A stretch of DNA of 26,985 nt from the IMG/VR virus record IMGVR_UViG_3300046733_001371, positions 1 through 26,985 of that record; one strand, given 5' to 3'. The number at the start of each line of letters is the position of its first letter. The stretch's first letter is position 1. The notes beneath the pieces were generated by a model. It made no database searches. It was not told the origin of the DNA and was given only the letters and a program-made list of their open reading frames with translations. The position numbers were made by a program, and so were the translations under genes. This stretch comes from a virus. Below, one piece after another: positions 458 to 26,442 of this stretch.

Positions 458-862
458 TTATGTTCTGTTTCCTCTAAGGGCAAAGTACATACCACCTACC
501 CATAACAGTACATGTAAATTATCATAAAGTATTACATCTGTGAAGCTTTCAGGTTCGCCAGTCCATATAACACCTGTCATAATACTAGCAATAGTAATGC
601 CTGAGAAACGTGTAATTATATCACCTAACTCTTTAAAATATTTTTGTAATGCAAGAATACCGCCAACTAATAATCCGGCAGCGGCACCTAATTCTCCTAG
701 TACAACAAATGACCATACTAGTAAAGTTAGCTCTACTGGCGAGTCATTTACATCAATAGGCCACTTCGCAAGCCCTTGTTGAAAAAATACAACAATAAGA
801 GGGATGCGAAGTAACCAATGAGTCATACAAAACTCTGGTATTTTATCAACTAAACTTTTCAT
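458..862 (-). CDS. DoxX-like four-helix integral membrane protein
   Basis: The 134-residue protein has four hydrophobic segments at about residues 17-34, 45-72, 82-100 and 110-129. The first contains LLRIPLIVVFFQQGLAKW, which fits the DoxX/SURF4-like pattern of a first helix ending in G-x-x-K. DoxX family proteins are small inner-membrane proteins, some linked to quinol oxidation or thiosulfate and redox metabolism; many have no known role. The start codon overlaps the pseudoazurin stop (TAATG), so the two are translationally coupled. Pairing with a copper electron carrier suggests a role around the host respiratory chain, which is an inference. The family call is by helix layout and one motif only. 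Confidence 0.55.
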   Translation of the reverse strand: MKSLVDKIPEFCMTHWLLRIPLIVVFFQQGLAKWPIDVNDSPVELTLLVWSFVVLGELGAAAGLLVGGILALQKYFKELGDIITRFSGITIASIMTGVIWTGEPESFTDVILYDNLHVLLWVGGMYFALRGNRT

Positions 863-1281
863 TACAGATCAGCTAATAACTCTTTTAATTTCTTCTTTGA
901 TTTGCCACGTACTTTGGCTTTTGAGATGTCATTATCTCCTTCACCTACAACAACAATAGCAATCATGCCCATTGTTTTATGTGGCGTACACTGATACAAA
1001 TATACACCTGGTGTGTCAAATGTAATAGCTACTTCTTTTGATAGTTTTGATTTCTTTGGTGCTTTCCAACCATCTGGTCCTGCAATAAATTCTACATTGT
1101 GACCTTTTTGTGTTGGTACCCATGTGATAGTATCGCCTACGTCGATACGTGCAATATCTTCACTGTACACCATTTTAGCGCCATCATCACGCTTGTTTAA
1201 CATTTCGATAGTCATGTCTTCTGCAAATGCTGGTGTCGCTAATGCAATCATAAGACCTACTGTTGTTAAGAGTTTTCTCAT
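862..1281 (-). CDS. Pseudoazurin/plastocyanin-like type 1 copper protein, secreted
   Basis: A 139-residue protein with an N-terminal signal peptide (residues 1-20, cleavage likely after ATPAFA), so it should act in the periplasm. The cupredoxin ligands are visible: His in KGHNVE and the C-terminal loop YQCTPHKTMGM, which supplies Cys, His and Met in the pseudoazurin spacing. These four residues bind one Cu ion that shuttles single electrons. In alphaproteobacteria pseudoazurin passes electrons to terminal reductases or oxidases. A lysine-rich tail (about residues 122-135) follows the copper domain. It overlaps the upstream small membrane gene by an ATGA junction. Cyanophages are known to carry plastocyanin; a pseudoazurin in a phage of an alphaproteobacterium would be a parallel case. 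Confidence 0.85.
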   Translation of the reverse strand: MRKLLTTVGLMIALATPAFAEDMTIEMLNKRDDGAKMVYSEDIARIDVGDTITWVPTQKGHNVEFIAGPDGWKAPKKSKLSKEVAITFDTPGVYLYQCTPHKTMGMIAIVVVGEGDNDISKAKVRGKSKKKLKELLADL

Positions 1282-2574: not shown

Positions 2575-2922
2575 TTACTCTTGTAGATATCCTACAGTCT
2601 CCCTTACAATATCATTATGATTAAATTCTGACCAGTATAGTTCAAAGGCAATACCTGCTTGTACACATTCGAACTGATGATAGACACCAGGTGGAACTTT
2701 ATGATATTGTCCTGGACCAATGATAGTTTCGTCAACTAGATCATAATCATTTTGCCATACTCTTACTTTCATAATGCCTTCTTCAACATAGAAGCCATTC
2801 CATTTATATTGGTGCATGTGCTTAGAACAAACACCGCCTTCATTCATCTCAATTCTATGGAACTCTAAACTATTATTAGCCTCTAATAGTTCTGTTTGTC
2901 CCCACACTTTACCTGCTATCAT
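2575..2922 (-). CDS. Cupin-fold protein linked to the Kdo genes
   Basis: The start at 2922 is preferred because GGAG lies at the right distance; a start at 2937 is possible. The 115-residue product carries a cupin pattern: CSKHMHQYKWNGFYVEEG in motif 1 (two His and a Glu as metal ligands) and PGQYHKVPPGVYHQFE in motif 2. This resembles the small cupins of the mannose-6-phosphate isomerase type and sugar-binding cupins. The gene overlaps the end of kdsB by 14 bases, so it belongs to the same transcript. A role in processing or isomerising a sugar in the Kdo pathway is plausible but not shown. Confidence 0.65.
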   Translation of the reverse strand: MIAGKVWGQTELLEANNSLEFHRIEMNEGGVCSKHMHQYKWNGFYVEEGIMKVRVWQNDYDLVDETIIGPGQYHKVPPGVYHQFECVQAGIAFELYWSEFNHNDIVRETVGYLQE

Positions 2923-3586
2923 TCCATTTCTCCGCATCTTGTGGTGTATTGATCTCAATACCATTAAACTCAGTATGTAAAATACCTATATCCCAACCCG
3001 CCTTTAACCATCGTAGTTGTTCAAGTCCTTCATTACGTTCTTCCCTAGTTGTAGGCAATCCTGTGTACATCTCTAATGCATTACGTCTGTATCCATATAT
3101 TCCCAGATGATGTTCACCATAAGAAAATCCTCTACCAAACCATAATGCTTTGTCGCCGGCTGTTATTACTTTAACGTTCTCTTTGATATGTCTTTCGCTT
3201 GGATTTAAATCTGTCCATAGTGTAGTTACAGGATAATGTTTTAAATGCCATTCAGTCTTTTCAATCATTTCAACTGTAACATCAGGCATGTCGCCTTGTA
3301 CGTTTATAAAAGTATCGTACTTAGAAAGTAACTCGCCATCAATAGCACCAGCACATCTTTCGGTTCCGTTCTCATAACGCTTAGTTTGATCGATCCAACA
3401 AACATCCCAACCAAATATCCCACCGATCTGCATATTGTCTGTAAGTACGTAGGTGTCAAGTCCTGATTCTTTACATCTCTCATAAACTCTCTCAATCATA
3501 GTCTTGCCATCTAGCATACATAGAGGCTTACCTGGAAAACGTGTGCTATCATACCTAGCTGGAATAACAATAGCTGTATTACTCAT
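2909..3586 (-). CDS. kdsB: CMP-Kdo synthetase (3-deoxy-manno-octulosonate cytidylyltransferase)
   Basis: The 225-residue protein starts MSNTAIVIPARYDSTRFPGKPL, the nucleotide-binding signature of KdsB (IPARYxSTRxPGKPL), and contains NVQGDMPDV for metal and substrate binding. KdsB activates Kdo with CTP to give CMP-Kdo, the donor for the inner core of lipopolysaccharide. Cellular KdsB is about 245-250 residues, so this copy is slightly short. It overlaps kdsA by 8 bases and the cupin gene by 14. The only other Kdo gene visible is kdsA; the isomerase (KdsD), phosphatase (KdsC) and a Kdo transferase are not in the window, so host enzymes would have to complete the path. The related acylneuraminate cytidylyltransferases are a less likely alternative. 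Confidence 0.85.
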   Translation of the reverse strand: MSNTAIVIPARYDSTRFPGKPLCMLDGKTMIERVYERCKESGLDTYVLTDNMQIGGIFGWDVCWIDQTKRYENGTERCAGAIDGELLSKYDTFINVQGDMPDVTVEMIEKTEWHLKHYPVTTLWTDLNPSERHIKENVKVITAGDKALWFGRGFSYGEHHLGIYGYRRNALEMYTGLPTTREERNEGLEQLRWLKAGWDIGILHTEFNGIEINTPQDAEKWNDSR

Positions 3587-4364
3587 TTGAGTCTCTTGAA
3601 TAATGAAATGCTATGATGTCTCTTACTACTTCTTCAAACTTGTCTATTTGAAGCATATTTGGACCATCGGATGGTGCGTTATCAGGCATTGGGTGCGTTT
3701 CAATGAAGAAGTTTGAGACGCCCAAAGCAGAGACACTACGACTAATGCCAGGCACAAGATCACGATTCCCCCCACTGCTATTCCCTTGTCCTCCGGGTTT
3801 TTGGGCAGCGTGTGTACAATCCATAACAATAGAGGCAGAAAAATTATTAAGCATGTACTCAATACCACTGTAATCAACAACAAGGGTGTTATATCCAAAA
3901 CTTGTACCTCTCTCTGTTATCCAAACTTCTCGGGCACCAACAGTTTTACTTAGAATTCCTTCAACGTCCCATGGTGCAAGAAATTGTCCCTTTTTAATAT
4001 TTATTATTTTATCTGTTTTACATACTGCTTGTATCAAGTCAGTTTGTCTACATAAAAAGGCTGGAATCTGTAATACGTCAACCGCATCATTAAACTCACG
4101 TGCAATACGATTTACTTGTACATAGTCATGTACATCAGTTAAGGTTTTAATATTATATTCTTCTTTTAATGTACGAAAGTCTCTAAGTGTTGCTTCCATA
4201 CCAACACCACGTTGGCTATCAATGTGCGTTCTATTTGCCTTGTCAAAACTTGCTTTAAAGTAATAGTCAATCCCATATTTGTCGCACACACGTTTGCACT
4301 CTTTGGCAATCTCTGCACTCTGTGCTAATCCTTCGTGCTGACATGGTCCTGCTATAATTCTCAT
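3579..4364 (-). CDS. kdsA: Kdo-8-phosphate synthase
   Basis: The 261-residue protein has the KdsA landmarks in order: IAGPC at the N terminus, YYFKASFDKANRTH, LTDVHDY, VDVLQIPAFLCRQTDL, NIKKGQFLAPWD and DCTHAAQKPGG. It condenses arabinose-5-phosphate with phosphoenolpyruvate to form Kdo-8-phosphate. It is about 20 residues shorter than E. coli KdsA but lacks none of the motifs. The conserved Cys in IAGPC suggests a metal-dependent (class II) form, although the E. coli metal-free enzyme has Asn elsewhere; this was not resolved. Together with kdsB directly downstream it forms a Kdo module that could supply surface or virion sugar. Confidence 0.9.
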   Translation of the reverse strand: MRIIAGPCQHEGLAQSAEIAKECKRVCDKYGIDYYFKASFDKANRTHIDSQRGVGMEATLRDFRTLKEEYNIKTLTDVHDYVQVNRIAREFNDAVDVLQIPAFLCRQTDLIQAVCKTDKIINIKKGQFLAPWDVEGILSKTVGAREVWITERGTSFGYNTLVVDYSGIEYMLNNFSASIVMDCTHAAQKPGGQGNSSGGNRDLVPGISRSVSALGVSNFFIETHPMPDNAPSDGPNMLQIDKFEEVVRDIIAFHYSRDSNE

Positions 4365-8082: not shown

Positions 8083-8385
8083 TTAGTCTGATTCTTCTAT
8101 CACTACATCTAATGGATATCCGGCACGGGCGGCTTCTGTGATAGTTTCTGTGCATTTTTGTTCTGCTACTTCGTAGCTATATGAGCCAACAACACATCGT
8201 CCTTTTTCATGCACTTCTAGCATAATTTCTTTTGCCTGTTCTGAAGTGTGTTTAAAAATTACAATTAAAACCTGTATTACAAAATCCATTGGTGTTACTT
8301 CATCGTTAAGCATCACTACATTATATTTGTTTGGTGTTTTTAACTTTGTTACGCCTGTGGATTCTTTTACTGCTACTTGTGTCAT
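8083..8385 (-). CDS. clpS: ClpS-like N-degron adaptor of the Clp protease
   Basis: The 100-residue protein matches ClpS along its length: YNVVMLNDEVTPMDFVIQVL near residue 21, IMLEVHEKGRCVVGSYSYEVAE and GYPLDVVIEE at the end. ClpS binds proteins with destabilising N-terminal residues and hands them to ClpA. The pocket elements Asn-Asp at the LND motif and His in EVHEKG are present; the second acidic residue is Glu rather than Asp. ClpA is not in the window, so the phage adaptor would act on the host ClpAP or redirect it. A weak Shine-Dalgarno precedes it. The hairpin at 8405-8430 lies just upstream, and an AATAAATA box (8439-8446) overlaps the end of the Hsp20 gene. Confidence 0.9.
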   Translation of the reverse strand: MTQVAVKESTGVTKLKTPNKYNVVMLNDEVTPMDFVIQVLIVIFKHTSEQAKEIMLEVHEKGRCVVGSYSYEVAEQKCTETITEAARAGYPLDVVIEESD

Positions 8386-8958: not shown

Positions 8959-9183
8959 CTACCAATTATCTTTGGCTTGTTTCTTTTTAAGGCGGGCTCT
9001 ACCTGCTGCCTCTGCCTTCAGACGTTTTTCAGTGTTACTGATAAAATGCTTTCTATCTCTTAACTCTTGAAATACCCCTTCGTTATTTAATTTTTTCTTT
9101 AACTTACGCATAGCCTGGTCAACATTGTTATTTCTAACTTCAATCCAAGTGCCTCTGCCTTTTTCTTTATTATGGTTACTCAT
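8959..9183 (-). CDS. rpsU: Ribosomal protein S21 homologue
   Basis: The 74-residue basic protein fits bS21: WIEVRNNNVDQAMRKLKKKL is the conserved N-terminal segment, followed by GVFQELRDRKHFISNTEKR and a lysine/arginine-rich helical tail ending KKKQAKDNW. S21 binds the 30S platform near the anti-Shine-Dalgarno region and influences initiation. It is overlapped by the IF-3 gene (ATGA), so both are made together. Phages with S21 are known and are thought to swap it into host ribosomes; here it travels with IF-3. Confidence 0.9.
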   Translation of the reverse strand: MSNHNKEKGRGTWIEVRNNNVDQAMRKLKKKLNNEGVFQELRDRKHFISNTEKRLKAEAAGRARLKKKQAKDNW

Positions 9184-9707
9184 TTTTGTATAATCCTTGA
9201 ACTTACTCGATTTCCGGACCTGTTTATCTTCTCTAACTTTGCATCTACCATATCTGCAAATTTATTTAAAATTGCTACTGCAAGATCATGTTTAGCTCGT
9301 TCACGCCCTCTTAATATGACGGTTAACGTTACTACATTACCTTTGGCCAGAAACTTTTCTGCATGTTTTGCCTTAGTCTCTAAGTCATGTGTCTCAATAT
9401 TAATGCCCAAACGAATCTCTTTCAATTCTACTGCATTTTCTCTTTGACGTTTTTTTGCCGCTTTTTCACTCTGTTTCTTCTCATATAAGAATTTATTTAA
9501 TTCTACAATTTTACAAACAGGCGGTTCAGCCTTTTCAGCAATAAGAATCAAATCAAGATTAAGTTTTTCCGCTACACTTAGTGCTTGGTTTTTACTCATT
9601 ATTTCAGAGCCACCATCCGGTAAATGTACTCGTAGTTTTTCGAATCTAATAGACCTATTTGCTACTACTCGATTTTCCGTCTTCTTATTATTAAATTTAT
9701 TCAACAC
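9180..9707 (-). CDS. infC: Translation initiation factor IF-3
   Basis: The start at 9707 is GTG with AAGG upstream, inside the end of clpX; the next in-frame codon is TTG. The 175-residue length is that of a full bacterial IF-3. The N domain shows IRFEKLRVHLPDGGS and LSVAEKLNLDLILIAEKAEP with PPVCKIVELNKFLYE, the linker is a basic run (KKRQRENAVELKEIR), and the C domain contains RLGINIETHDLETKAKHAEK and VTLTVILRGRE. IF-3 binds the 30S subunit, prevents 50S joining and proofreads start codon and initiator tRNA. Cellular infC usually starts with AUU and is autoregulated; that is not seen here. A phage IF-3 beside S21 is the clearest sign of translation takeover in the window. Confidence 0.9.
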   Translation of the reverse strand: MLNKFNNKKTENRVVANRSIRFEKLRVHLPDGGSEIMSKNQALSVAEKLNLDLILIAEKAEPPVCKIVELNKFLYEKKQSEKAAKKRQRENAVELKEIRLGINIETHDLETKAKHAEKFLAKGNVVTLTVILRGRERAKHDLAVAILNKFADMVDAKLEKINRSGNRVSSRIIQK

Positions 9708-10911
9708 TACTGCCTTTTTGCATGTGTGGTTTTCTCATTTTATCTATAACCTCAGGCGTAATTGTTGCCTTTTTATATCCTCGTTTTTTTAGATCAGGAA
9801 GATCATATTGTGTTTCCATTAAACAATCATCTAATATTTTTCTAAGGCCGCGAGCTCCTAAATTCTGTGTTATTGCAATGTCTGCAATTCTATTTATACT
9901 TTCTATTGTAAACTCTAATTCAATATTGTCAAGTGAAAATAGAACTTTAATTTGTTCTACTAGACAGTCCTTGGGCTCAGTTAAAACTCTCACTAAATCT
10001 TCTTGTGTTAGTTCTCGTAAAATATTTACACTAGGAAGTCTCCCTAAAAATTCTGGTATTAATCCGTACTGAACTAAATCAGTTGTTTCTAGTTGATCTT
10101 CCCAAGCATGTTTATCCAACATACCGGACTGAAATCCTATCTTGGTTTTACCCATACGCTGTGTTACTACATTTTCCAATCCAACAAAAGCACCACCTAC
10201 TATAAACAATATATTTTTAGTATCAATATCCACTCTCTCTGGATTGGCTTGTGGCTTGTTGGGTACTGTAACTACTGTACCTTCCATTAGTTTAAGTAAA
10301 CTTTGCTGAACACCTTCACCACTTACATCTCTACTCAAACTTACTAAATCATTACGCTTTGCTTTTTTATCAATTTCATCTACATATATGATACCCATTT
10401 CAGTCGCATCAATATCATAGTCACTATTCTGGAATAATTTGTGTATTAATACTTCTACATCATCTCCAGCATATCCGCTTTCTGTCATTGTTGTTGCATC
10501 AGTAATAACAAAAGGAACTTTTAAAGTATTTGCTAATGTTTGAGCAATTAATGTTTTTCCTACACCTGTTGGGCCTAAAAGCAAAACATTACTTTTGGAA
10601 ATTTTTGTACTGCTCTTATTAGTGAGCCTTTTGTAATGATTATAAACTGCTACGCTGATGCTTTTTTTAACATGCTCCTGACCAATTACATATTCATTTA
10701 ATTTATGATGTAACCACTTGGGTGTTACTTCATCAAATTTAATTTTCTTTGACGAAATGCGCTCTTGATCTTTCAGAACACCATAACTAAGTTTTACACA
10801 TTCATCACAGATGTGTATGTCACTGGTTTCGCCAGTTAAAAGTTTGTTAACCTGTGATTTTGATTTACCACAAAAGTTACATGTTGGGGAACTAATAATT
10901 TCTATCGGCAT
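9697..10911 (-). CDS. clpX: ClpX ATPase of the ClpXP protease
   Basis: The 404-residue protein is close to full length. Visible parts: zinc-binding domain with Cys11, Cys14, Cys35 and Cys38; Walker A GPTGVGKT (113-120); pore loop GYAG (146-149); Walker B IIYVDEID (174-181); the ClpP-docking IGF motif (258-260); IPEFLGRLP; and GARGLRKILDD. ClpX unfolds proteins and feeds them to ClpP. Two changes stand out against E. coli ClpX: the pore loop is GYAG instead of GYVG, and the RKH loop that binds the ssrA tag is replaced by NKPQANPER (218-226) and shortened by about three residues. A phage ClpP is encoded at 14186-14806. SD GGA precedes the start, which lies inside the previous gene. Confidence 0.93.
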   Translation of the reverse strand: MPIEIISSPTCNFCGKSKSQVNKLLTGETSDIHICDECVKLSYGVLKDQERISSKKIKFDEVTPKWLHHKLNEYVIGQEHVKKSISVAVYNHYKRLTNKSSTKISKSNVLLLGPTGVGKTLIAQTLANTLKVPFVITDATTMTESGYAGDDVEVLIHKLFQNSDYDIDATEMGIIYVDEIDKKAKRNDLVSLSRDVSGEGVQQSLLKLMEGTVVTVPNKPQANPERVDIDTKNILFIVGGAFVGLENVVTQRMGKTKIGFQSGMLDKHAWEDQLETTDLVQYGLIPEFLGRLPSVNILRELTQEDLVRVLTEPKDCLVEQIKVLFSLDNIELEFTIESINRIADIAITQNLGARGLRKILDDCLMETQYDLPDLKKRGYKKATITPEVIDKMRKPHMQKGSSVE

Positions 10912-13499: not shown

Positions 13500-14177
13500 T
13501 CATTTCTTATTATCTTGTAGCCATTTCTTAGCCGCTGGCATCTTTGGAGGTGTTCTTAAAAAGTTATCTATTGCACGTTGTACTTCCAACGCATCATCTT
13601 TAACATCCTCGTGATCTAACCCATATGTATTATCAATAATATGAAAGTTTGCTGATCCAAACAACCTTTGAAATTTACCTATGTTTGACTGTACTGTATT
13701 CCACATTTTTGTTAACATGTCTGCTGGTACAGTTCTTGCACGTTGAGCATTACGCTGTAGTGTTACATCTAGATTAGTGTTTACCATAATCATCATACAC
13801 TCATAACCTAGTTGCTCTAATGCTTTTTTGTCTTTTGCTACTTTAGCGACATCTTTACCGGTGCCGTCAAGTATTACTCCTAGACGCCCATCTAAGAAAT
13901 GCCCTTGTTTTGCTTTTGTTAATTTTTTAGCCTTATTACGAATTTCTTGGCCTTGCTCGCTACCTACGACATCTGGATCTCCAAGATCCATATCGTGCTT
14001 TCGTGCCAAGTATTCATAAATTTCATCACTATTGACAGATTTTAAGCCGGTGCCACCCAGTAACTTTCCAGCCGCATAAGACTTTCCACTACCCGGGCCA
14101 CCTGCCATAAAAACTGCTTTAAAAATATGAGGATCGTTAGGACCCTCATCAAGTGTTGTTACCTCATGTATCTTCAT
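13500..14177 (-). CDS. P-loop kinase of the zeta-toxin/AAA_33 type
   Basis: The 225-residue protein has a Walker A motif AGGPGSGKSYAAGKLL (about residues 25-40), NSDEIYEYLARK following, GVILDGTGKD as a Walker B-like strand, and a helical lid with LQRNAQRARTVP containing arginines for phosphate handling. Such proteins phosphorylate small molecules, nucleotides or polynucleotide ends; in phages the substrate is usually unknown. The start MKIHEVTTLDEGPNDPH is typical of pelagic T4-like phages. There is no Shine-Dalgarno sequence; the CATAAATA box ends five bases before the ATG, predicting a leaderless late transcript. Confidence 0.75.
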   Translation of the reverse strand: MKIHEVTTLDEGPNDPHIFKAVFMAGGPGSGKSYAAGKLLGGTGLKSVNSDEIYEYLARKHDMDLGDPDVVGSEQGQEIRNKAKKLTKAKQGHFLDGRLGVILDGTGKDVAKVAKDKKALEQLGYECMMIMVNTNLDVTLQRNAQRARTVPADMLTKMWNTVQSNIGKFQRLFGSANFHIIDNTYGLDHEDVKDDALEVQRAIDNFLRTPPKMPAAKKWLQDNKK

Positions 14178-18454: not shown

Positions 18455-18462
18455 TATTTATA
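18455..18462 (-). promoter_or_regulatory. T4-late-like promoter TATAAATA
   Basis: A perfect TATAAATA on the minus strand overlapping the radical SAM stop codon. Transcription from it would begin close to the outer base of the 14-bp hairpin. Confidence 0.6.
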
Positions 18463-19465
18463 GTATATTATCCCAATGTGGTTTGCTATCGTTTATTCCA
18501 CATCTCCAATTGCATTCAACACATGATTGTCCATCAGCATATAAACTATCCCATAACCGTTGCCAAAAATCATTTTGCATTATGCTCTTTAGTGAATGTT
18601 TGTTTAGATCATTCCAATCTGTACTTCCGTAGAAGTCACTTATTTGATCAGCAATAATACCTTCGCCGCTTGATGCAGTCGCCCAACCACAACATGGATG
18701 AACTATACCAGACTCAGTAACAAAGATTGCGTTTAAATCAAAACATACATCTTTAAATCCGTTTTTTGGTCTTGGGGCGGCTTCTGATTCAGTAACAGGC
18801 GCTTTGTCACAAACTTCATTAATCAATCCGCGATCTGCTGCCGCTATTTGATTCATTAAAACTTTCTCACTTGCTCTACCTTGGCGTTTTACAAAACTAT
18901 CAAAACCCAAATCGTACGCCAATTCTTCTGCTTCATCTACCTGATGTTCATTCCATGGAAATATAATGAACTGCCACTGACTTGAACAATTCTTTGCTTC
19001 GTTAAATGCTCTTGCGTTTGCTACAATCTTTTCCCATGAAACTTTACGCCTATAGATATGATTAGTATCAGACAACCCGTCTACATTAAATTTAAATAAA
19101 TCTGTACTAGTAGTCTTTTTTGCAACCTTTGTGTAGTAGTCAGGATGCTTTAGCCCGCCATTTGTGCTTATATCTAAAGATGCTTTTTCTGGGGCTCGTT
19201 CTTTTATTAACTCAACTATTTCTAAAAACTTAGTATGAGCTAGTGGATCACCTGCGGTTCCACAAAACTGTAGTTCAGATTCTTCTGCTAAAATTTGTTC
19301 AGATAAAATATTCTCAATTACCTTGAGATCAATTTCTTGATTAAAGTTTACCCAAGGACTTAACATTAGTCCTTTGTCGGTTGCATCATATCTAGAACAG
19401 CCCGGACACCATGCGTTACAGGCGGTGGATATTTCAAATTCTATCTTCTCTACCTGTTCATACAT
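18458..19465 (-). CDS. Radical SAM protein with C-terminal SPASM/twitch-type cysteine cluster
   Basis: The start at 19465 (MYEQVEKIEFEISTACNAWC) overlaps the stop of the FNR gene as TAATG. The radical SAM motif is ACNAWCPGC (Cys-x3-Cys-x2-Cys, about residues 15-22), which binds the [4Fe-4S] cluster that cleaves SAM. C-terminal cysteines at GIVHPCCGWA and SCVECNWRCG match an auxiliary cluster of the twitch or SPASM type, seen in enzymes that modify peptides or sugars. The 335-residue length is typical. Substrate is unknown. The FNR next to it would supply electrons and the oxygenases suggest a modification pathway. Confidence 0.88.
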   Translation of the reverse strand: MYEQVEKIEFEISTACNAWCPGCSRYDATDKGLMLSPWVNFNQEIDLKVIENILSEQILAEESELQFCGTAGDPLAHTKFLEIVELIKERAPEKASLDISTNGGLKHPDYYTKVAKKTTSTDLFKFNVDGLSDTNHIYRRKVSWEKIVANARAFNEAKNCSSQWQFIIFPWNEHQVDEAEELAYDLGFDSFVKRQGRASEKVLMNQIAAADRGLINEVCDKAPVTESEAAPRPKNGFKDVCFDLNAIFVTESGIVHPCCGWATASSGEGIIADQISDFYGSTDWNDLNKHSLKSIMQNDFWQRLWDSLYADGQSCVECNWRCGINDSKPHWDNIL

Positions 19466-20229
19466 TACACAATAGTCTCTACAAATGCTCGTTCTTGAAC
19501 AAAATCTCCTGGACTTCGCATTGTTCCATGCATCCATCCATCTTCTTCTAACATCTCTCTAATTTCATTATTAAAACTTGGTCCACCGCAAATCATAATA
19601 CGATCAAATTTCTTGTTAAATCTAATGTAACCTAAACCTAAGTCGTTAAATAGTTTTCCGCTTCTAATATTATCAGTAATTCTTCCAGCAAATACACCTT
19701 CATTTGGTTCTTCACGTGTAACACTTTGATATACTATTGCTCCATGTTCTTCTAGCTCGTCTTTAAACACAAGCTCATTATTGAAACGGCAAGTATGTGT
19801 AACTACAACCTGTTCATAATAATCGTAAACTTCTGGATGTCTTGCTAAACTTAGAAATGGAGCGAGACCAGTACCAGTACTAATCATCCAAAGTCTTCCT
19901 TTTCCTGCAATACATGGTTCAGGATCAATATTACGCAATAGCAATGTTCCAATTGCTTTTTCACTTACTATAATCTCATCACCAGGCTTAATATGTTGTA
20001 GCTTACTGGTTAGCGGACCGTCTTGTACTTTTATGCTGAAAAATTCCAGGTGTTCGTCTTCTGGTGAATTAGCGATACTGTATGCCCTAGTTAATGTTGG
20101 CTCCATGCCAATCATAGTAAACTCTCCTGGTTGGAAGTTTTTATTTTTCCATGCTTCTGATTTGGTTGTCTTAAACCAAAATAAATCTTCTGTAAAATGC
20201 TTGATTTCTAAAACTGTCTCGGTGTTCAT
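19465..20229 (-). CDS. Ferredoxin/flavodoxin-NADP reductase (Fpr type)
   Basis: A 254-residue flavoprotein with the FAD-binding motif LTRAYSIANSP (about 48-58), the NADP-binding loop MISTGTGLAPFLSLARHPEV, CGGPSFNNEIREML, and the C-terminal FVQERAFVETIV found in bacterial subclass I Fpr enzymes. It moves electrons from NADPH to ferredoxin or flavodoxin. The ATGA overlap with the oxygenase gene upstream and the TAATG overlap with the radical SAM gene downstream tie the three together. The likely job is supplying low-potential electrons to the radical SAM cluster through a host ferredoxin or flavodoxin; no ferredoxin gene is in the window. Confidence 0.9.
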   Translation of the reverse strand: MNTETVLEIKHFTEDLFWFKTTKSEAWKNKNFQPGEFTMIGMEPTLTRAYSIANSPEDEHLEFFSIKVQDGPLTSKLQHIKPGDEIIVSEKAIGTLLLRNIDPEPCIAGKGRLWMISTGTGLAPFLSLARHPEVYDYYEQVVVTHTCRFNNELVFKDELEEHGAIVYQSVTREEPNEGVFAGRITDNIRSGKLFNDLGLGYIRFNKKFDRIMICGGPSFNNEIREMLEEDGWMHGTMRSPGDFVQERAFVETIV

Positions 20230-20996
20230 TGTATTTCCTTGTAAAATTGTATGTTTATACCACTCTTAAGCCAACGATAGTTTGGCTTGCTTCTACGAAC
20301 GCAACTCGCATGTACCTGACATGCATCAAATATCATAACGTCACCTGGGTTGTAATGTAGGGTATTTTCAATACTAAAGCCTCGCATATTACCAACTGGT
20401 ATCTGAGGAAACAAAAACTCTTTTTGCCTTACATAGTCTGTTTCCATATTTAGCACATTGCCGGATATATCTACGCACTCAGGATATTCACGTGCTACTA
20501 CATAATCACTATTTCCTTGTTCACTTACATGCATACGATCAAAGGTAACACTATACCCAATATGCCGTTGATCAAAAAACGAAGTGTGTGCATCACTCCA
20601 ATTAGTAATCATTAAAGGTATGATTGCACTCTTATATGGAATAACATTTTTTGTCCATTGTTCTGCACACTCTCTCTCACTTAATAAGTCTACATGCGCA
20701 TCATGTAACTGTGTGGTAATATAATAATTTCCAGAATGCTTGTCACTGAAACTACCTATCTCTTGTTCAAATTTAGATTTTAAAAAAGGGGCTTTTTCAA
20801 ATAATAAATTTATATCACAAACTGGTTGCATATTATTACTACTTGGTGCCCATTTGAGTTTATCTGCTAACTGAAACTGCAATAATGATATCTGATTAAT
20901 TTCATCATCATTAAACATTCCAGCTACCACACGAGCAGGTTCGAATCTACCTATGATTTCATTTTTAAATTCTTTGCAATTATTAATATATGTCAT
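20226..20996 (-). CDS. 2-oxoglutarate/Fe(II) oxygenase-like protein, 256 aa
   Basis: The centre holds TTQLHDAHVDLLSE, in which HVD would be the metal-binding His-x-Asp, and the C-terminal third holds GDVMIFDACQVHASCVRRSK, giving the second His and nearby Arg for 2-oxoglutarate. This fits a jelly-roll dioxygenase. It is coupled to FNR by ATGA and to the oxygenase upstream in the same way, so a stepwise oxidation of one substrate is plausible. The substrate is not recognisable. Confidence 0.65.
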   Translation of the reverse strand: MTYINNCKEFKNEIIGRFEPARVVAGMFNDDEINQISLLQFQLADKLKWAPSSNNMQPVCDINLLFEKAPFLKSKFEQEIGSFSDKHSGNYYITTQLHDAHVDLLSERECAEQWTKNVIPYKSAIIPLMITNWSDAHTSFFDQRHIGYSVTFDRMHVSEQGNSDYVVAREYPECVDISGNVLNMETDYVRQKEFLFPQIPVGNMRGFSIENTLHYNPGDVMIFDACQVHASCVRRSKPNYRWLKSGINIQFYKEIQ

Positions 20997-21691
20997 TTTA
21001 GATATGTAAAAATACTTAAACCTAGTTTTTCTTCAATGCCTTGAGCATTAAAATTTACTGCACTATGAATTCTAGCAGTATCAAATGTAATTATATTTCC
21101 TGGTTTCCATGGAACAATTTGCTCAACACTCAGTCCCCAAAATGCATCCAAGTCTTGATGTGTAAAATATTTGTTATATAATATTTCATCAAATGCTTTT
21201 CCTGTATAATTAATTAATTTACTATTATCATACAAGTCTTGATTATAGTATACATTTTTTGCAGGCTTATGTCGACTCCTAATCTTAACTGGACCATCCA
21301 AATAGCACTGATCAAACACTGCAAAATTACTTGGTTTAGATATCTCTATTGGTATTACTACAGTTTTGTGTAATCTAGGTACATGCACTACACTATCATC
21401 ATTGTGTAATATGTGAGGCTTTTGTACCTTAAAAAAATTAGCGGCAAATACTCCAACATTGTCACCAATAAAAGGTCGTAGTAACGTATTAAATTCAGTA
21501 AACCATTCAGTATAACCTTCCTTTTCTGGAAAAAAGTCCATAGTTACTGGTCCAGTATTCTTGTATGTTTTTTTACCGTCATTGAATACTGTTTTTAATC
21601 GACTAATCCAAGAACTGTTTATGACGTTTTCATAAACATTAGTTGGCTCTAATCTTGAAAGGATTTCTTGTTTTTGCTCTGTTGTTCTCAT
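20993..21691 (-). CDS. 2-oxoglutarate/Fe(II) oxygenase-like protein, 232 aa
   Basis: The middle contains KPHILHNDDSVVHVP, with a possible His-x-Asp, and the C-terminal part PGNIITFDTARIHSAVNFNA followed by KLGLSIFTYL, matching the end of phytanoyl-CoA-like oxygenases. It shares domain style and the RLEP-like N-terminal segment (SRLEPTNVYE versus GRFEPARVVA) with the next gene, so the two are probably paralogues from a duplication. It is first in the oxidative cassette, and its start faces the plus-strand island across 43 bases. Confidence 0.6.
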   Translation of the reverse strand: MRTTEQKQEILSRLEPTNVYENVINSSWISRLKTVFNDGKKTYKNTGPVTMDFFPEKEGYTEWFTEFNTLLRPFIGDNVGVFAANFFKVQKPHILHNDDSVVHVPRLHKTVVIPIEISKPSNFAVFDQCYLDGPVKIRSRHKPAKNVYYNQDLYDNSKLINYTGKAFDEILYNKYFTHQDLDAFWGLSVEQIVPWKPGNIITFDTARIHSAVNFNAQGIEEKLGLSIFTYLK

Positions 21692-21734
21692 GGCTAAATA
21701 TACTTATACAATATTTATCTATAGGAGTTTCCCC
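21692..21734. promoter_or_regulatory. Divergent intergenic region with opposed late-type boxes
   Basis: The 43 bases between the divergent genes hold GATAAATA on the minus strand and GCTAAATA on the plus strand, so transcription may leave in both directions. The plus-strand gene has TAGGAG as its ribosome-binding site. Confidence 0.4.
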
Positions 21735-23078
21735 ATGAGTTCATTTCTAGGGATTGCGTCAACTGACGAATGGGTCAGAGAACACGTATCAATTGCTTGG
21801 CTGGCAAATCATAATATAAAGTCAAAGGTAGTAAAACCAATGATGGAAAACATTACCGAGCATCAAGTTTTAGAAGCATTCATTGAAGACTTTAATCAGG
21901 TTTATGGAGAAAACATAAATGACTGTTTAGAGCAAGTTTTACAAAACGGACACCAATACGCTTTTGTTTTGAAAGTCGGTAACTTTATGCATGACACAAA
22001 GTATACAATTAATCATTATTTTAAAAAATTATGGAATGGTGAAAAAGTAGTAGGACATATTTTAGATAGAAAAGACGGGTATTATGAAATACATCCACAA
22101 GCATTTATGATAGATGTTAAGTGGTGGGAAGAAAAGGGTAAACCTGCCTTTGGAGACACTGTTAGGTGTACTTGGTCAATTACAGAACCAGAACGTAGTG
22201 ATATAAATTTTCATGATGACTATACTCCAATTTGGGTTAAAAAAGGCACTAATACAAAACAATACAATATGAAATATCGTGGTGCTGATTGGATTAAATT
22301 AGCTTTAGAAGATGACGCATTGGGAGTTTGGCCGGATCAAATTAGAGCTTCTAAAGAATATATGTATCCAGAAGTTCCCGACTATATGTTTAAAATGGAA
22401 GATATCCACAAGTCAATGGACTCTAATATATTATATGCGGCAAATACAGAAACTATTTCTATCAACCGCCGTAATAAGGTTGAACCTCATGACACTGTTA
22501 TTTGTAGTGCTGGCGGTGCTAGTCCGTTTTTACATGCATATACTAATAGATTAAGACCAGACGGCAATTTATGGATATATGATATCAGTCCGTTAGCCTT
22601 ACAATTCCAACAAAAGTTATATCTGTATTGGGATGGAAAAAATTATGCAAAGTTCTTACAAGACTTTATGAAAGAAAATCCATTGTTTAAAAGACATATT
22701 GTAAGTACTCAGCGATTACGTGAGTATAGTGATTTTATCGATGGGATTAATGGATTTCAAGAATGGTTCCAAAAAAGCAAAACTACTTGGGATATCCGGT
22801 TTGTTGAAACTGACATTTTAAATACACAAGGCTTTGTTAGAAAAATTAGAGGCTTTATGAATCCTGGAAGTAAGGTTTTGTTACATACAAGTAATATTTT
22901 TTGTTATCATAAAACAAGTTACTTATTAAATTATAACGAAAAATATATACTGTGGGAGCATCTAAATGATGCTATTAAACAATGGAAAAACGCTGATGTA
23001 GATTTAACATCTAATGTATTTTTTAACGATAGTAAAAGAAAGATATTTGAGATATTACCATGGTACACAAAATTTTAG
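21735..23078 (+). CDS. Large two-domain protein, glycosyltransferase-like N part and methyltransferase-like C part
   Basis: The start at 21735 (MSSFLGIASTDEWVREHVSI) has TAGGAG in front; a frame upstream is possible but unsupported. The N half contains FVLKVGNFMHDTKY, VVGHILDRKDGYYEIHPQAF and a W-W pair, which recalls phage proteins with a Rossmann-type sugar-nucleotide fold. The C half has TVICSAGGASPFLHAYTNRL followed by NLWIYDISPLALQFQQKLYL, the look of a SAM-binding Rossmann fold. Both assignments are by pattern only. It is one of only two genes on the plus strand here and is linked to the hydroxylase gene that follows. Confidence 0.45.
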   Translation: MSSFLGIASTDEWVREHVSIAWLANHNIKSKVVKPMMENITEHQVLEAFIEDFNQVYGENINDCLEQVLQNGHQYAFVLKVGNFMHDTKYTINHYFKKLWNGEKVVGHILDRKDGYYEIHPQAFMIDVKWWEEKGKPAFGDTVRCTWSITEPERSDINFHDDYTPIWVKKGTNTKQYNMKYRGADWIKLALEDDALGVWPDQIRASKEYMYPEVPDYMFKMEDIHKSMDSNILYAANTETISINRRNKVEPHDTVICSAGGASPFLHAYTNRLRPDGNLWIYDISPLALQFQQKLYLYWDGKNYAKFLQDFMKENPLFKRHIVSTQRLREYSDFIDGINGFQEWFQKSKTTWDIRFVETDILNTQGFVRKIRGFMNPGSKVLLHTSNIFCYHKTSYLLNYNEKYILWEHLNDAIKQWKNADVDLTSNVFFNDSKRKIFEILPWYTKF

Positions 23079-23806
23079 AAGAGTTTATTAGTTCGTGTAA
23101 AGAACACAGTCATTATGAACACTTAAATGAATGTCCTTCTCATTTTGAAGAATGGACTGAAAAAAGACATTTACGTCATGACTATCATAAATGGATTAGA
23201 AAAGAAAGTAATGTACCTAGCCTAAGGCTAGATATAGATTTTCCGTTTAAAGAAGTATATGATGAAGCAATGAACGCTGAAGTTCATTTAATAAAACATC
23301 GGGGTTCAGCTCATCCAGGATGGGAAAGTATGGCAGTACACGGACAGGCAGTATGGGCTACTGATCCTCCAAAAAATAATCCAGAACTTGAAGGTGTTGA
23401 CTTCCATTGGACAGAACTCGCAGATATTTGCCCACGTACAGTTGAGTGGTTTAAAGATTGTTGGCCTACACAAGGTTACCAACGTATACGTTTTATGATG
23501 TTAAGGGATGGTGGTTTTATCCGTCCTCATCAGGACTTGGATAGACGTGAACTAAGTGCTATGAATATTGCTCTTAATAATCCGGACGGTTGTGAATTTG
23601 CCATGGAAGATGCAGGTATTATTCCTTGGGTTCCTGGCGATGTTAGATTAATAGATGTCGGCAGGCGCCATTGTGTATGGAATCAAAGTGGCAAAGATCG
23701 TTTGCATATGATTGTTCATGACAAGTGGACGCCTGCGCAGTATGATATTGTTTGTAGAAGTTATGATCTACTAAAACGTGATTATCTACCGTTTACAAAT
23801 GCATAA
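23060..23806 (+). CDS. Asp/Asn beta-hydroxylase-like 2-oxoglutarate oxygenase
   Basis: The C-terminal half carries LRDGGFIRPHQDLDRRELSA (His-x-Asp), NIALNNPDGCEFAM, PGDVRLIDVGRRHCVWNQSG and DRLHMIVHDKWTP, which is the spacing of the aspartyl/asparaginyl beta-hydroxylase domain (two His, one Asp, and an Arg for 2-oxoglutarate). The first 90 residues are helical and unmatched. It overlaps the preceding gene by 19 bases and runs convergently into the next gene with a 25-base overlap. It may hydroxylate a residue in a phage or host protein; no target is visible. Confidence 0.75.
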   Translation: MVHKILEEFISSCKEHSHYEHLNECPSHFEEWTEKRHLRHDYHKWIRKESNVPSLRLDIDFPFKEVYDEAMNAEVHLIKHRGSAHPGWESMAVHGQAVWATDPPKNNPELEGVDFHWTELADICPRTVEWFKDCWPTQGYQRIRFMMLRDGGFIRPHQDLDRRELSAMNIALNNPDGCEFAMEDAGIIPWVPGDVRLIDVGRRHCVWNQSGKDRLHMIVHDKWTPAQYDIVCRSYDLLKRDYLPFTNA

Positions 23807-24846: not shown

Positions 24847-24878
24847 AAAAAACGACTATTCTGTTGCCAGGCTAGTCG
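24847..24878 (-). terminator. Intrinsic terminator of the tmRNA gene
   Basis: A six-pair stem (CGACTA with TAGTCG) with a 14-base loop is followed by six T residues on the minus strand, ending the coding piece. Confidence 0.7.
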
Positions 24879-24896
24879 CCAACCCCTACGTACCTA

Positions 24897-24938
24897 TTAG
24901 GCCGCTAATGCCATTTCTGGCTGATAATTGTCATTTGC
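24897..24938 (-). other. tmRNA tag reading frame, ANDNYQPEMALAA
   Basis: The resume codon is GCA (24938-24936) and the frame reads A-N-D-N-Y-Q-P-E-M-A-L-A-A, then TAA and TAG in tandem. The start (AND) and the end (LAA) match the family; the LAA tail is the signal read by ClpX in bacteria. With the alanine carried by the RNA itself the tag becomes AANDNYQPEMALAA. Confidence 0.9.
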
Positions 24939-25164
24939 AATTATAAAGTTTAACCTATTACGCTGTTACCCGGTTAACTCCACTTCACTTTCACACCTGT
25001 CGATCCTAGTTCAGCCCCATCATAAACATACGACTTGTGGCTTTCGGCCCTTGTCCTATGCACAGGAAAGTAGGTGCATCTACTCTCATATGTTTATGGT
25101 GGAGCTGCGCGGTACTGCCCCGCGGTCCAGTATGTGTCTACGTTGCTTCAACGCCAACATACTA

Positions 25165-25193
25165 TTTATAGCAAAAGAAGATGATTTTGTCAA
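25165..25193 (-). promoter_or_regulatory. tmRNA promoter TTGACA-17-TATAAATA
   Basis: A consensus TTGACA (25193-25188), exactly 17 bases, then TATAAA (25170-25165), which continues as TATAAATA, the T4 late box (25170-25163). Either a host sigma70 holoenzyme or the late sigma of the phage could use it, so the tmRNA may be made throughout infection. Confidence 0.75.
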
Positions 25194-26020: not shown

Positions 26021-26095
26021 TGGCTGGAACGGTAGGACTCGAACCTACAATCACCTGTACCAAAAACAGGTGCATTACCATTATGCTACGTTCCA
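26021..26095 (-). tRNA. tRNA-Gln (UUG)
   Basis: Acceptor stem TGGAACG with CGTTCCA, G73 and an encoded CCA. The anticodon loop is TTTTGGT on the stem CCTGT/ACAGG, giving anticodon UUG. U1-A72 and G73 match glutamine identity. Confidence 0.9.
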
Positions 26096-26106
26096 ATGAT
26101 AATAAA

Positions 26107-26183
26107 TGGCGCGGTTGACGGGACTCGAACCCGCGACCCTCGGCGTGACAGGCCGATACTCTAACCAACTGAGCTACAACCGC
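26107..26183 (-). tRNA. tRNA-Asp (GUC)
   Basis: Acceptor stem GCGGTTG with CAACCGC, G73 and an encoded CCA. The anticodon stem is TCGGC/GCCGA with loop CTGTCAC, giving GUC; T arm and D stem are normal. Confidence 0.93.
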
Positions 26184-26202
26184 CCTGTAATAAATTTTTA
26201 AA

Positions 26203-26277
26203 TGGTAGTCCCTACGGGAATCGAACCCGTCTTTCCAGGTTGAAAACCTGGCGTCCTAACCGATAGACGAAGGGACC
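26203..26277 (-). tRNA. tRNA-Glu (UUC)
   Basis: Acceptor stem GGTCCCT with AGGGACT, so the first pair is a G-U wobble. Anticodon loop TTTTCAA on CCAGG/CCTGG, giving UUC. Discriminator A and encoded CCA follow. Confidence 0.9.
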
Positions 26278-26282
26278 AAACT

Positions 26283-26360
26283 TGGCAAAGGTGGAGAGAT
26301 TCGAACTCTCTAATCCTGGTTTTGGAGACCAGTGTGCCACTCCAACTGCACCGCACCCTC
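26283..26360 (-). tRNA. tRNA-Trp (CCA)
   Basis: Anticodon loop CTCCAAA on CTGGT/ACCAG, giving CCA. The acceptor stem GAGGGTG with CACCTTT has two G-U pairs; G73 and encoded CCA follow, matching tryptophan identity. Confidence 0.88.
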
Positions 26361-26365
26361 ATTAT

Positions 26366-26442
26366 TGGTCTTGGTGGTAGGATTTGAACCTACGATCTCT
26401 TGCACCCAAAGCAAGCGCCTTACCAAACTAGGCCACACCAAG
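26366..26442 (-). tRNA. tRNA-Pro (UGG)
   Basis: Acceptor stem CTTGGTG with CACCAAG, A73 and encoded CCA. Anticodon loop TTTGGGT gives UGG. This is the first tRNA after the promoter at 26459-26487. Confidence 0.92.

What the first reader, a model, noticed from the sequence alone, without database searches (positions are those of the whole stretch)
24847..25193. Phage-borne circularly permuted two-piece tmRNA
Seen: on the minus strand an acceptor half ending CCA precedes a half starting GGGGCTG. The two pair in a seven-pair acceptor stem with the G-U at pair three. A 78-base spacer with complementary ends lies between, and a tag frame ANDNYQPEMALAA and a terminator follow. Known: permuted tmRNA genes occur in alphaproteobacteria, some cyanobacteria and some betaproteobacteria; one-piece tmRNAs are known in some phages. 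Inference: this is a functional phage tmRNA captured from an alphaproteobacterial host lineage. It was not recognised as a gene by any open-reading-frame logic.
Basis: partly seen in the sequence, partly recalled or inferred. Interest (0 to 1): 0.92.

Follow-up and report, generated by a model that had tools for sequence, protein, structure and literature searches.

The report
Phage two-piece tmRNA beside Clp genes
This virus fragment carries a real gene for a two-piece ribosome-rescue RNA of a kind already published for many marine phages; what is less expected is that its relatives carry it close to their own Clp protease genes, and that the phage ClpX has lost the residues that normally read the rescue tag.

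Summary
Minus strand 25193-24847 holds a circularly permuted, alphaproteobacterial-type tmRNA gene: Rfam alpha_tmRNA 122.6 bits, tmRNA_permuted 118.2 bits, and an ARAGORN permuted call with tag ANDNYQPEMALAA. In 35 related viral genes the T-stem, D-like helix and spacer hairpin covary, so it is under selection. It is a known kind: two-piece phage tmRNAs were reported in 2022 (53, mostly aquatic), and one 20-base pattern finds at least 119 IMG/VR stretches.

New here: (1) the window's relatives share a promoter, TTGACA-N17-TATAAATA; none of 51 host tmRNA genes has the TATAAATA; (2) tmRNA and clpX travel together: 28 of 50 clpX-bearing viral contigs also hold a permuted tmRNA, always on the same strand within 20 kb; clpP, infC and clpS are usually present; (3) no SmpB was found in about 100 contigs; (4) all 51 ClpX proteins of the window's clade have lost the E. 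coli ssrA-contact residues (Val154, Thr199, RKH loop), while 25 more distant phage ClpX keep them.

Most likely the RNA rescues stalled ribosomes with host SmpB, and tagged proteins go to host proteases.

The parts
25163..25193 (-). promoter TTGACA (25193-25188), 17-nt spacer, TATAAATA (25170-25163)
   Evidence: Sequence. TATAAATA in this position in 31 of 65 distinct viral tmRNA genes and 0 of 51 host genes.
25097..25158 (-). acceptor piece: 5' hairpin, half of the D-like helix, T-arm 25124-25108, acceptor strand and CCA 25107-25097; transcription start near 25158 is inferred from the promoter
   Evidence: cmscan alignment, pairing, covariation of T-stem and D-like helix in 35 viral sequences.
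25019..25096 (-). 78-nt spacer removed on processing; ends pair over 8 bp
   Evidence: 91% of cells paired across 35 sequences against 69% in shuffles.
24853..25018 (-). coding piece: acceptor 5' strand GGGGCTG, second half of the D-like helix, resume codon GCA, 3' hairpin 24878-24853
24894..24938 (-). tag reading frame ANDNYQPEMALAA followed by TAA TAG
   Evidence: ARAGORN; the same tag on contig L065.
24847..24852 (-). T-run after the 3' hairpin, probable terminator
   Evidence: Sequence.
9697..10911 (-). ClpX with pore-1 GYAG, Ser at position 199 (E. coli numbering) and no GGRKH; zinc finger, Walker motifs and IGF kept
   Evidence: Pfam, PDB alignment, survey of 76 phage ClpX.
14186..14806 (-). 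ClpP
   Evidence: Pfam CLP_protease 208.9 bits; closest solved relatives are bacterial ClpP.
9180..9707 (-). translation initiation factor IF3, directly after clpX
   Evidence: Pfam IF3_N and IF3_C.
8083..8385 (-). ClpS adaptor
   Evidence: Pfam ClpS 105.8 bits.

Best explanation
It is a phage-resident, circularly permuted (two-piece) tmRNA gene of the alphaproteobacterial type. A promoter with a host-type -35 and a phage-type -10 makes one precursor. The spacer hairpin holds the halves together and host tRNA-processing enzymes cut it out, leaving an acceptor piece and a coding piece joined by the acceptor stem and the D-like helix. The G3-U70 pair makes it a substrate for host alanyl-tRNA synthetase. 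With host SmpB it enters ribosomes stalled on broken mRNA, adds ANDNYQPEMALAA and frees the ribosome for phage translation. Tagged fragments are probably destroyed mainly by host ClpXP or ClpAP, because the phage's own ClpX lacks the known tag-contact residues. Shown: gene anatomy, covariation, promoter conservation, linkage to clpX, no SmpB found, ClpX residue changes. Inferred: processing, charging, tagging, timing, and which protease acts.
For: Two Rfam models and ARAGORN agree on both halves. T-stem, D-like helix and spacer hairpin covary. The promoter is conserved among phage copies and absent from host copies. The tag ends in ALAA, with ALAA/AIAA/AMAA endings in most relatives. SmpB was not found in the roughly 100 records searched, including contigs of 183-242 kb. 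ClpX of the clade lacks Val154, Thr199 and the RKH motif, which in E. coli contact the tag (PMC7652416). G012 and G051 have the same type of tag with ordinary ClpX, so tag and ClpX type are not tied.
Against: No transcript, charging or tagging data. The E. coli rules for ClpX may not hold for a protein 40-50% identical. Constant linkage of tmRNA to clpX could mean that the two do act together. Most contigs are fragments, so SmpB could lie in unsequenced parts.
Confidence: 0.78

Rival explanations
1. Private tag-and-destroy pathway: the phage tmRNA adds a tag that is read chiefly by the phage's own remodelled ClpX with its own ClpP, giving the phage a separate degradation channel for stalled or host proteins.
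For: tmRNA and clpX are linked on the same strand in 28 of 28 contigs that hold both; clpP and clpS are usually present; ClpX has changed exactly at the tag-contact sites.
Against: The changes remove known contacts and no replacement is evident; phages with ordinary ClpX (G012, G051) carry the same PEMALAA tags; the tag still ends in a conventional ALAA.
Confidence: 0.15
2. Decoy: the phage RNA mainly competes for host SmpB and so blocks host trans-translation, as proposed for the tRNA-like-domain-only RNA of mycobacteriophage DS6A.
For: A tRNA-like-only RNA similar to that of DS6A inhibits tmRNA (PMC4131195); these phages bring no SmpB of their own.
Against: The tag frame, resume codon region and stop are intact, and tags are kept across dozens of diverged phages.
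Confidence: 0.05
3. Passive relic: a host ssrA copy picked up by imprecise excision or recombination, without a function for the phage.
For: Host ssrA genes are integration sites and ssrA fragments occur in prophages (PMC9004378).
Against: Full length, covarying, with a promoter unlike that of the hosts, and grouped with other phage copies.
Confidence: 0.02

Closest known systems
Two-piece tmRNA of methylophage Melnitz and related marine myophages (PMC9004378)
   Same: Alphaproteobacterial-type permuted tmRNA on a marine phage; alpha_tmRNA 106.7 and tmRNA_permuted 113.4 bits.
   Different: Melnitz has a glutamine riboswitch after the tmRNA, the window has none; Melnitz has a gp23 capsid gene and no ClpS or IF3 was found in it; its tag is ANDNYVPVDYALAA.
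Sinorhizobium jumbo phages Phosso and AP-J-162
   Same: Permuted tmRNA in Phosso (108 bits); clpX directly followed by infC, plus ClpS. AP-J-162 reports a tmRNA, clpX next to IF-3 and Hsp20 (PMC11242549).
   Different: ClpX only 45.6% identical, with GYVG, Thr199 and GGRKN; the tmRNA locus is much longer (690 nt).
Bacillus phage G
   Same: A phage with a tmRNA (PMC4131195) and adjacent ClpP- and ClpX-like genes.
   Different: Bacillus host; the ClpX keeps GYVG, Thr199 and GGRKH. Its tmRNA was not examined here.
Alphaproteobacterial tmRNA of bacteria (Rfam RF01849)
   Same: All model positions covered, encoded CCA, 3' element CCTGGCAACAGAA.
   Different: Acceptor pairs 5 and 6 differ from the consensus by compensatory changes; promoter -10 TATAAATA; phage copies group apart from the sampled hosts.

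Membership tests
Permuted tmRNA, alphaproteobacterial type (RF01849, RF04321) | Covariance-model match over both halves above the gathering score | tested here: met
   122.6 bits (cut-off 50) and 118.2 bits (cut-off 47), full model.
Permuted tmRNA, alphaproteobacterial type (RF01849, RF04321) | Acceptor half upstream of the coding half, with a spacer between | tested here: met
   CCA at 25099-25097, spacer 25096-25019, GGGGCTG from 25018.
Permuted tmRNA, alphaproteobacterial type (RF01849, RF04321) | Seven-pair acceptor stem with G-U at pair three | tested here: met
Permuted tmRNA, alphaproteobacterial type (RF01849, RF04321) | Tag frame with Ala resume codon, ending in Ala-Ala and a stop | tested here: met
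   GCA...GCC TAA TAG, ANDNYQPEMALAA.
Permuted tmRNA, alphaproteobacterial type (RF01849, RF04321) | Transcript processed into two RNAs | not testable with these tools
   No expression data; the covarying spacer hairpin is indirect support.
Permuted tmRNA, alphaproteobacterial type (RF01849, RF04321) | Alanylation and trans-translation with SmpB | not testable with these tools
   Inferred only; no SmpB was found in the phage records.
ClpXP that degrades ssrA-tagged proteins (as in E. coli) | Zinc finger, Walker motifs, IGF loop and a ClpP partner | tested here: met
ClpXP that degrades ssrA-tagged proteins (as in E. coli) | Tag-contact residues: Val154, Thr199, RKH loop | tested here: not met
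   Ala (Ile once), Ser and no GGRKH in all 51 clade members; roles of the residues from PMC7652416.

The most novel reading that the evidence does not exclude
A lineage of marine jumbo-size phages keeps a linked proteostasis set (tmRNA, ClpX, ClpP, ClpS, IF3) in which ClpX has been rebuilt at exactly the tag-reading sites: either the phage protease is kept off ssrA-tagged products and serves other clients while tagging feeds host proteases, or it reads a private signal. Both would be a phage-specific separation of tagging from degradation.
Probability: 0.35. Interest if true: 0.68.

Novelty: new member of a known kind. Interest (0 to 1): 0.42.

Why it matters
Why phages carry tmRNA is an open question; published suggestions are upkeep of the hijacked translation machinery or recycling of host proteins (PMC9004378). 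The linkage with clpX shown here, with loss of the tag-contact residues in the same phages, makes the question testable with purified ClpXP and tagged GFP. It also warns against assuming that a phage clpX completes the tagging pathway. Such genes are invisible to ORF callers and unannotated in some deposited phages (for example Phosso).

Tried and rejected
Glutamine riboswitch after the tmRNA, as in Melnitz: none in the window even with permissive settings. SspB as a phage partner: none in 23 records. T4-type gp23 capsid gene to place the lineage: not found in the fragments of the window's clade, present in Melnitz and Phosso, so the lineage is unplaced. Covariation of the acceptor stem: uninformative, because the search pattern fixed one strand. 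Conservation of the 3' hairpin: the loop was found exactly in only 4 of 35 sequences, partly because the extracts were cut at 200 nt; not pursued. The generic promoter scan missed the promoter because it demands T at the last position of the -10. Three weak tmRNA matches at 22.7 bits: ARAGORN calls tRNA-Ala genes at two of these places and the third was not fetched.

Full report
What is there. The finding is real. On the minus strand, 25193-24847, lies a complete circularly permuted tmRNA gene. ARAGORN calls it as permuted with tag ANDNYQPEMALAA and two stop codons. Rfam gives alpha_tmRNA at 122.6 bits over the whole model and tmRNA_permuted at 118.2 bits; a permissive search adds nothing else. 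The sequence shows CCA at 25099-25097, a 78-nt spacer, GGGGCTG from 25018, a seven-pair acceptor stem with G-U at the third pair, the tag at 24938-24900, and a 3' hairpin with a T-run to 24847. The hairpin called a terminator also contains the conserved alpha-tmRNA element CCTGGCAACAGAA. The window is a 26,985-base virus record of IMG/VR.

Is it under selection? A 20-base pattern from the coding half finds at least 119 stretches in IMG/VR; ARAGORN calls a permuted tmRNA in most of those it could read. In 35 distinct viral genes that carry the same -10 element, the T-stem pairs in 175 of 175 cells although its sequence varies (shuffles 75%), the D-like helix in 93% (shuffles 79%), and the eight pairs at the spacer ends in 91% (shuffles 69%, at most 74%). 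Such shuffles do not correct for relatedness. The spacer hairpin appears to be maintained, as expected if it presents the precursor for processing. The acceptor stem is invariant in this sample, partly because the search fixed one strand, so it is not counted.

Promoter. Directly upstream is TTGACA, 17 nt, TATAAATA (25193-25163). TATAAATA sits in this position in 31 of 65 distinct viral tmRNA genes, including nearly all close relatives of the window's, and in none of 51 cellular tmRNA genes. In 582 kb around clpX of related phages TATAAATA occurs 29 times on the sense strand in the 100 nt before ORFs and never on the antisense strand (these counts include near-identical contigs); most of the distinct sites lack a TTGACA. 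PMC9004378 names TATAAAT as the T4-like late promoter element. The tmRNA promoter thus joins a sigma-70 -35 to the phage's own -10. That it is read at both stages of infection is inference.

Known kind. Two-piece phage tmRNAs are not new. PMC9004378 describes one in the marine methylophage Melnitz and counts 53 two-piece among 133 distinct phage tmRNAs, 50 of the 53 from marine or aquatic phages. DSS3_MAL1 and Melnitz carry annotated ones. Sinorhizobium jumbo phage Phosso has an unannotated one at 108 bits, and AP-J-162 reports a tmRNA and a clpX next to IF-3 (PMC11242549). In a tree of 118 tmRNAs almost all phage copies form one group apart from the cellular rows: two label changes against about 34 in shuffles. 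The one cellular row inside the phage group, L171, lies on a contig binned as Bacteroidetes and may itself be phage. The gene looks long-resident in phages. The host sample holds only genomes that match the 20-base pattern exactly and includes no SAR11, so the donor is not placed.

Neighbourhood. The same contig encodes ClpX, ClpP, ClpS, IF3 and an Hsp20. From the tmRNA side, 6 of 48 contigs of 22 kb or more carry ClpX (G002 and G003 came in through ClpX and are left out). From the ClpX side, 28 of 50 contigs carry a permuted tmRNA over the cut-off, although most are fragments. In the 28 the two genes are on the same strand every time, 4.5-20 kb apart. ClpS was found in 11 of 14 and IF3 in 11 of 15 records tested. 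Among isolate phage records only 71 of 50,697 hold a comparable ClpX. The linkage is far above chance, but it reflects related phages more than independent gains. Contigs reach 242 kb, so part of the group at least is of jumbo size. SmpB was not found in any record searched, nor SspB in 23, so host SmpB is presumably used.

ClpX. The phage ClpX proteins surveyed fall into two sets. In the window's set of 51, pore-1 is GYAG (GYIG once), position 199 is Ser and the GGRKH motif is gone. In the other 25, GYVG, Thr199 and GGRKH are all kept (alignment). Phosso and Atu_ph07 keep GYVG and have GGRKN; phage G keeps all three. In E. coli these residues contact the ssrA tag: Y153A, V154F and R228A raise KM 50-fold or more, T199S about four-fold, and human ClpXP, with leucines at the Thr199 and His230 positions, does not degrade ssrA substrates (PMC7652416). 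The ClpP-docking IGF loop and the zinc finger are kept. The clade's ClpX is therefore predicted to work with ClpP but to recognise ssrA tags poorly. G012 and G051 carry the same PEMALAA type of tag with ordinary ClpX, so tag and ClpX did not change together. This speaks against a private tag-reader pair and for degradation of tagged fragments by host enzymes. The 51 sequences are one clade, so this is probably a single evolutionary change that has been kept.

Conclusion. The RNA is a new member of a known kind. The linkage to clpX together with loss of the tag-contact residues is the part worth following. Rescue with host SmpB and host proteolysis is the best-supported reading, but it rests on inference from E. 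coli biochemistry and has not been shown.

Noticed in passing
window 2909-4364, minus: A cytidylyltransferase (CTP_transf_3) next to a DAHP/KDO8P-synthase-type enzyme: a possible phage route to a KDO-like sugar for surface modification.
   Followed up: partly
window 18458-23806: A cluster with a radical SAM protein, an oxidoreductase NAD-binding protein and an Asp/Arg-hydroxylase-like protein, beside several proteins without any Pfam match.
   Followed up: partly
window 862-1281, minus: A secreted-looking plastocyanin/azurin-type copper protein on a phage contig.
   Followed up: no
window 13500-14177, minus: A zeta-toxin-like P-loop kinase between clpP and a nuclease-like gene.
   Followed up: no
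window 26021-26442, minus: Five tRNA genes (Gln, Asp, Glu, Trp, Pro) just upstream of the tmRNA; a similar set lies upstream of the tmRNA in L327 and L329.
   Followed up: partly
L127:2402-2865: A GOLLD RNA (160.5 bits) immediately before the tmRNA of phage DSS3_MAL1, overlapping a tRNA-Arg.
   Followed up: no
L319:1887-1961: ARAGORN reports a tRNA-Pyl-type gene with anticodon CUA next to the tmRNA of a 233-kb clpX-bearing phage contig: possibly an amber-reading tRNA, or a miscall.
   Followed up: no
L056, L064, L118: Viral tmRNAs with an unusually long tag, ANDNFKPELSFDFDGVLEAA.
   Followed up: no
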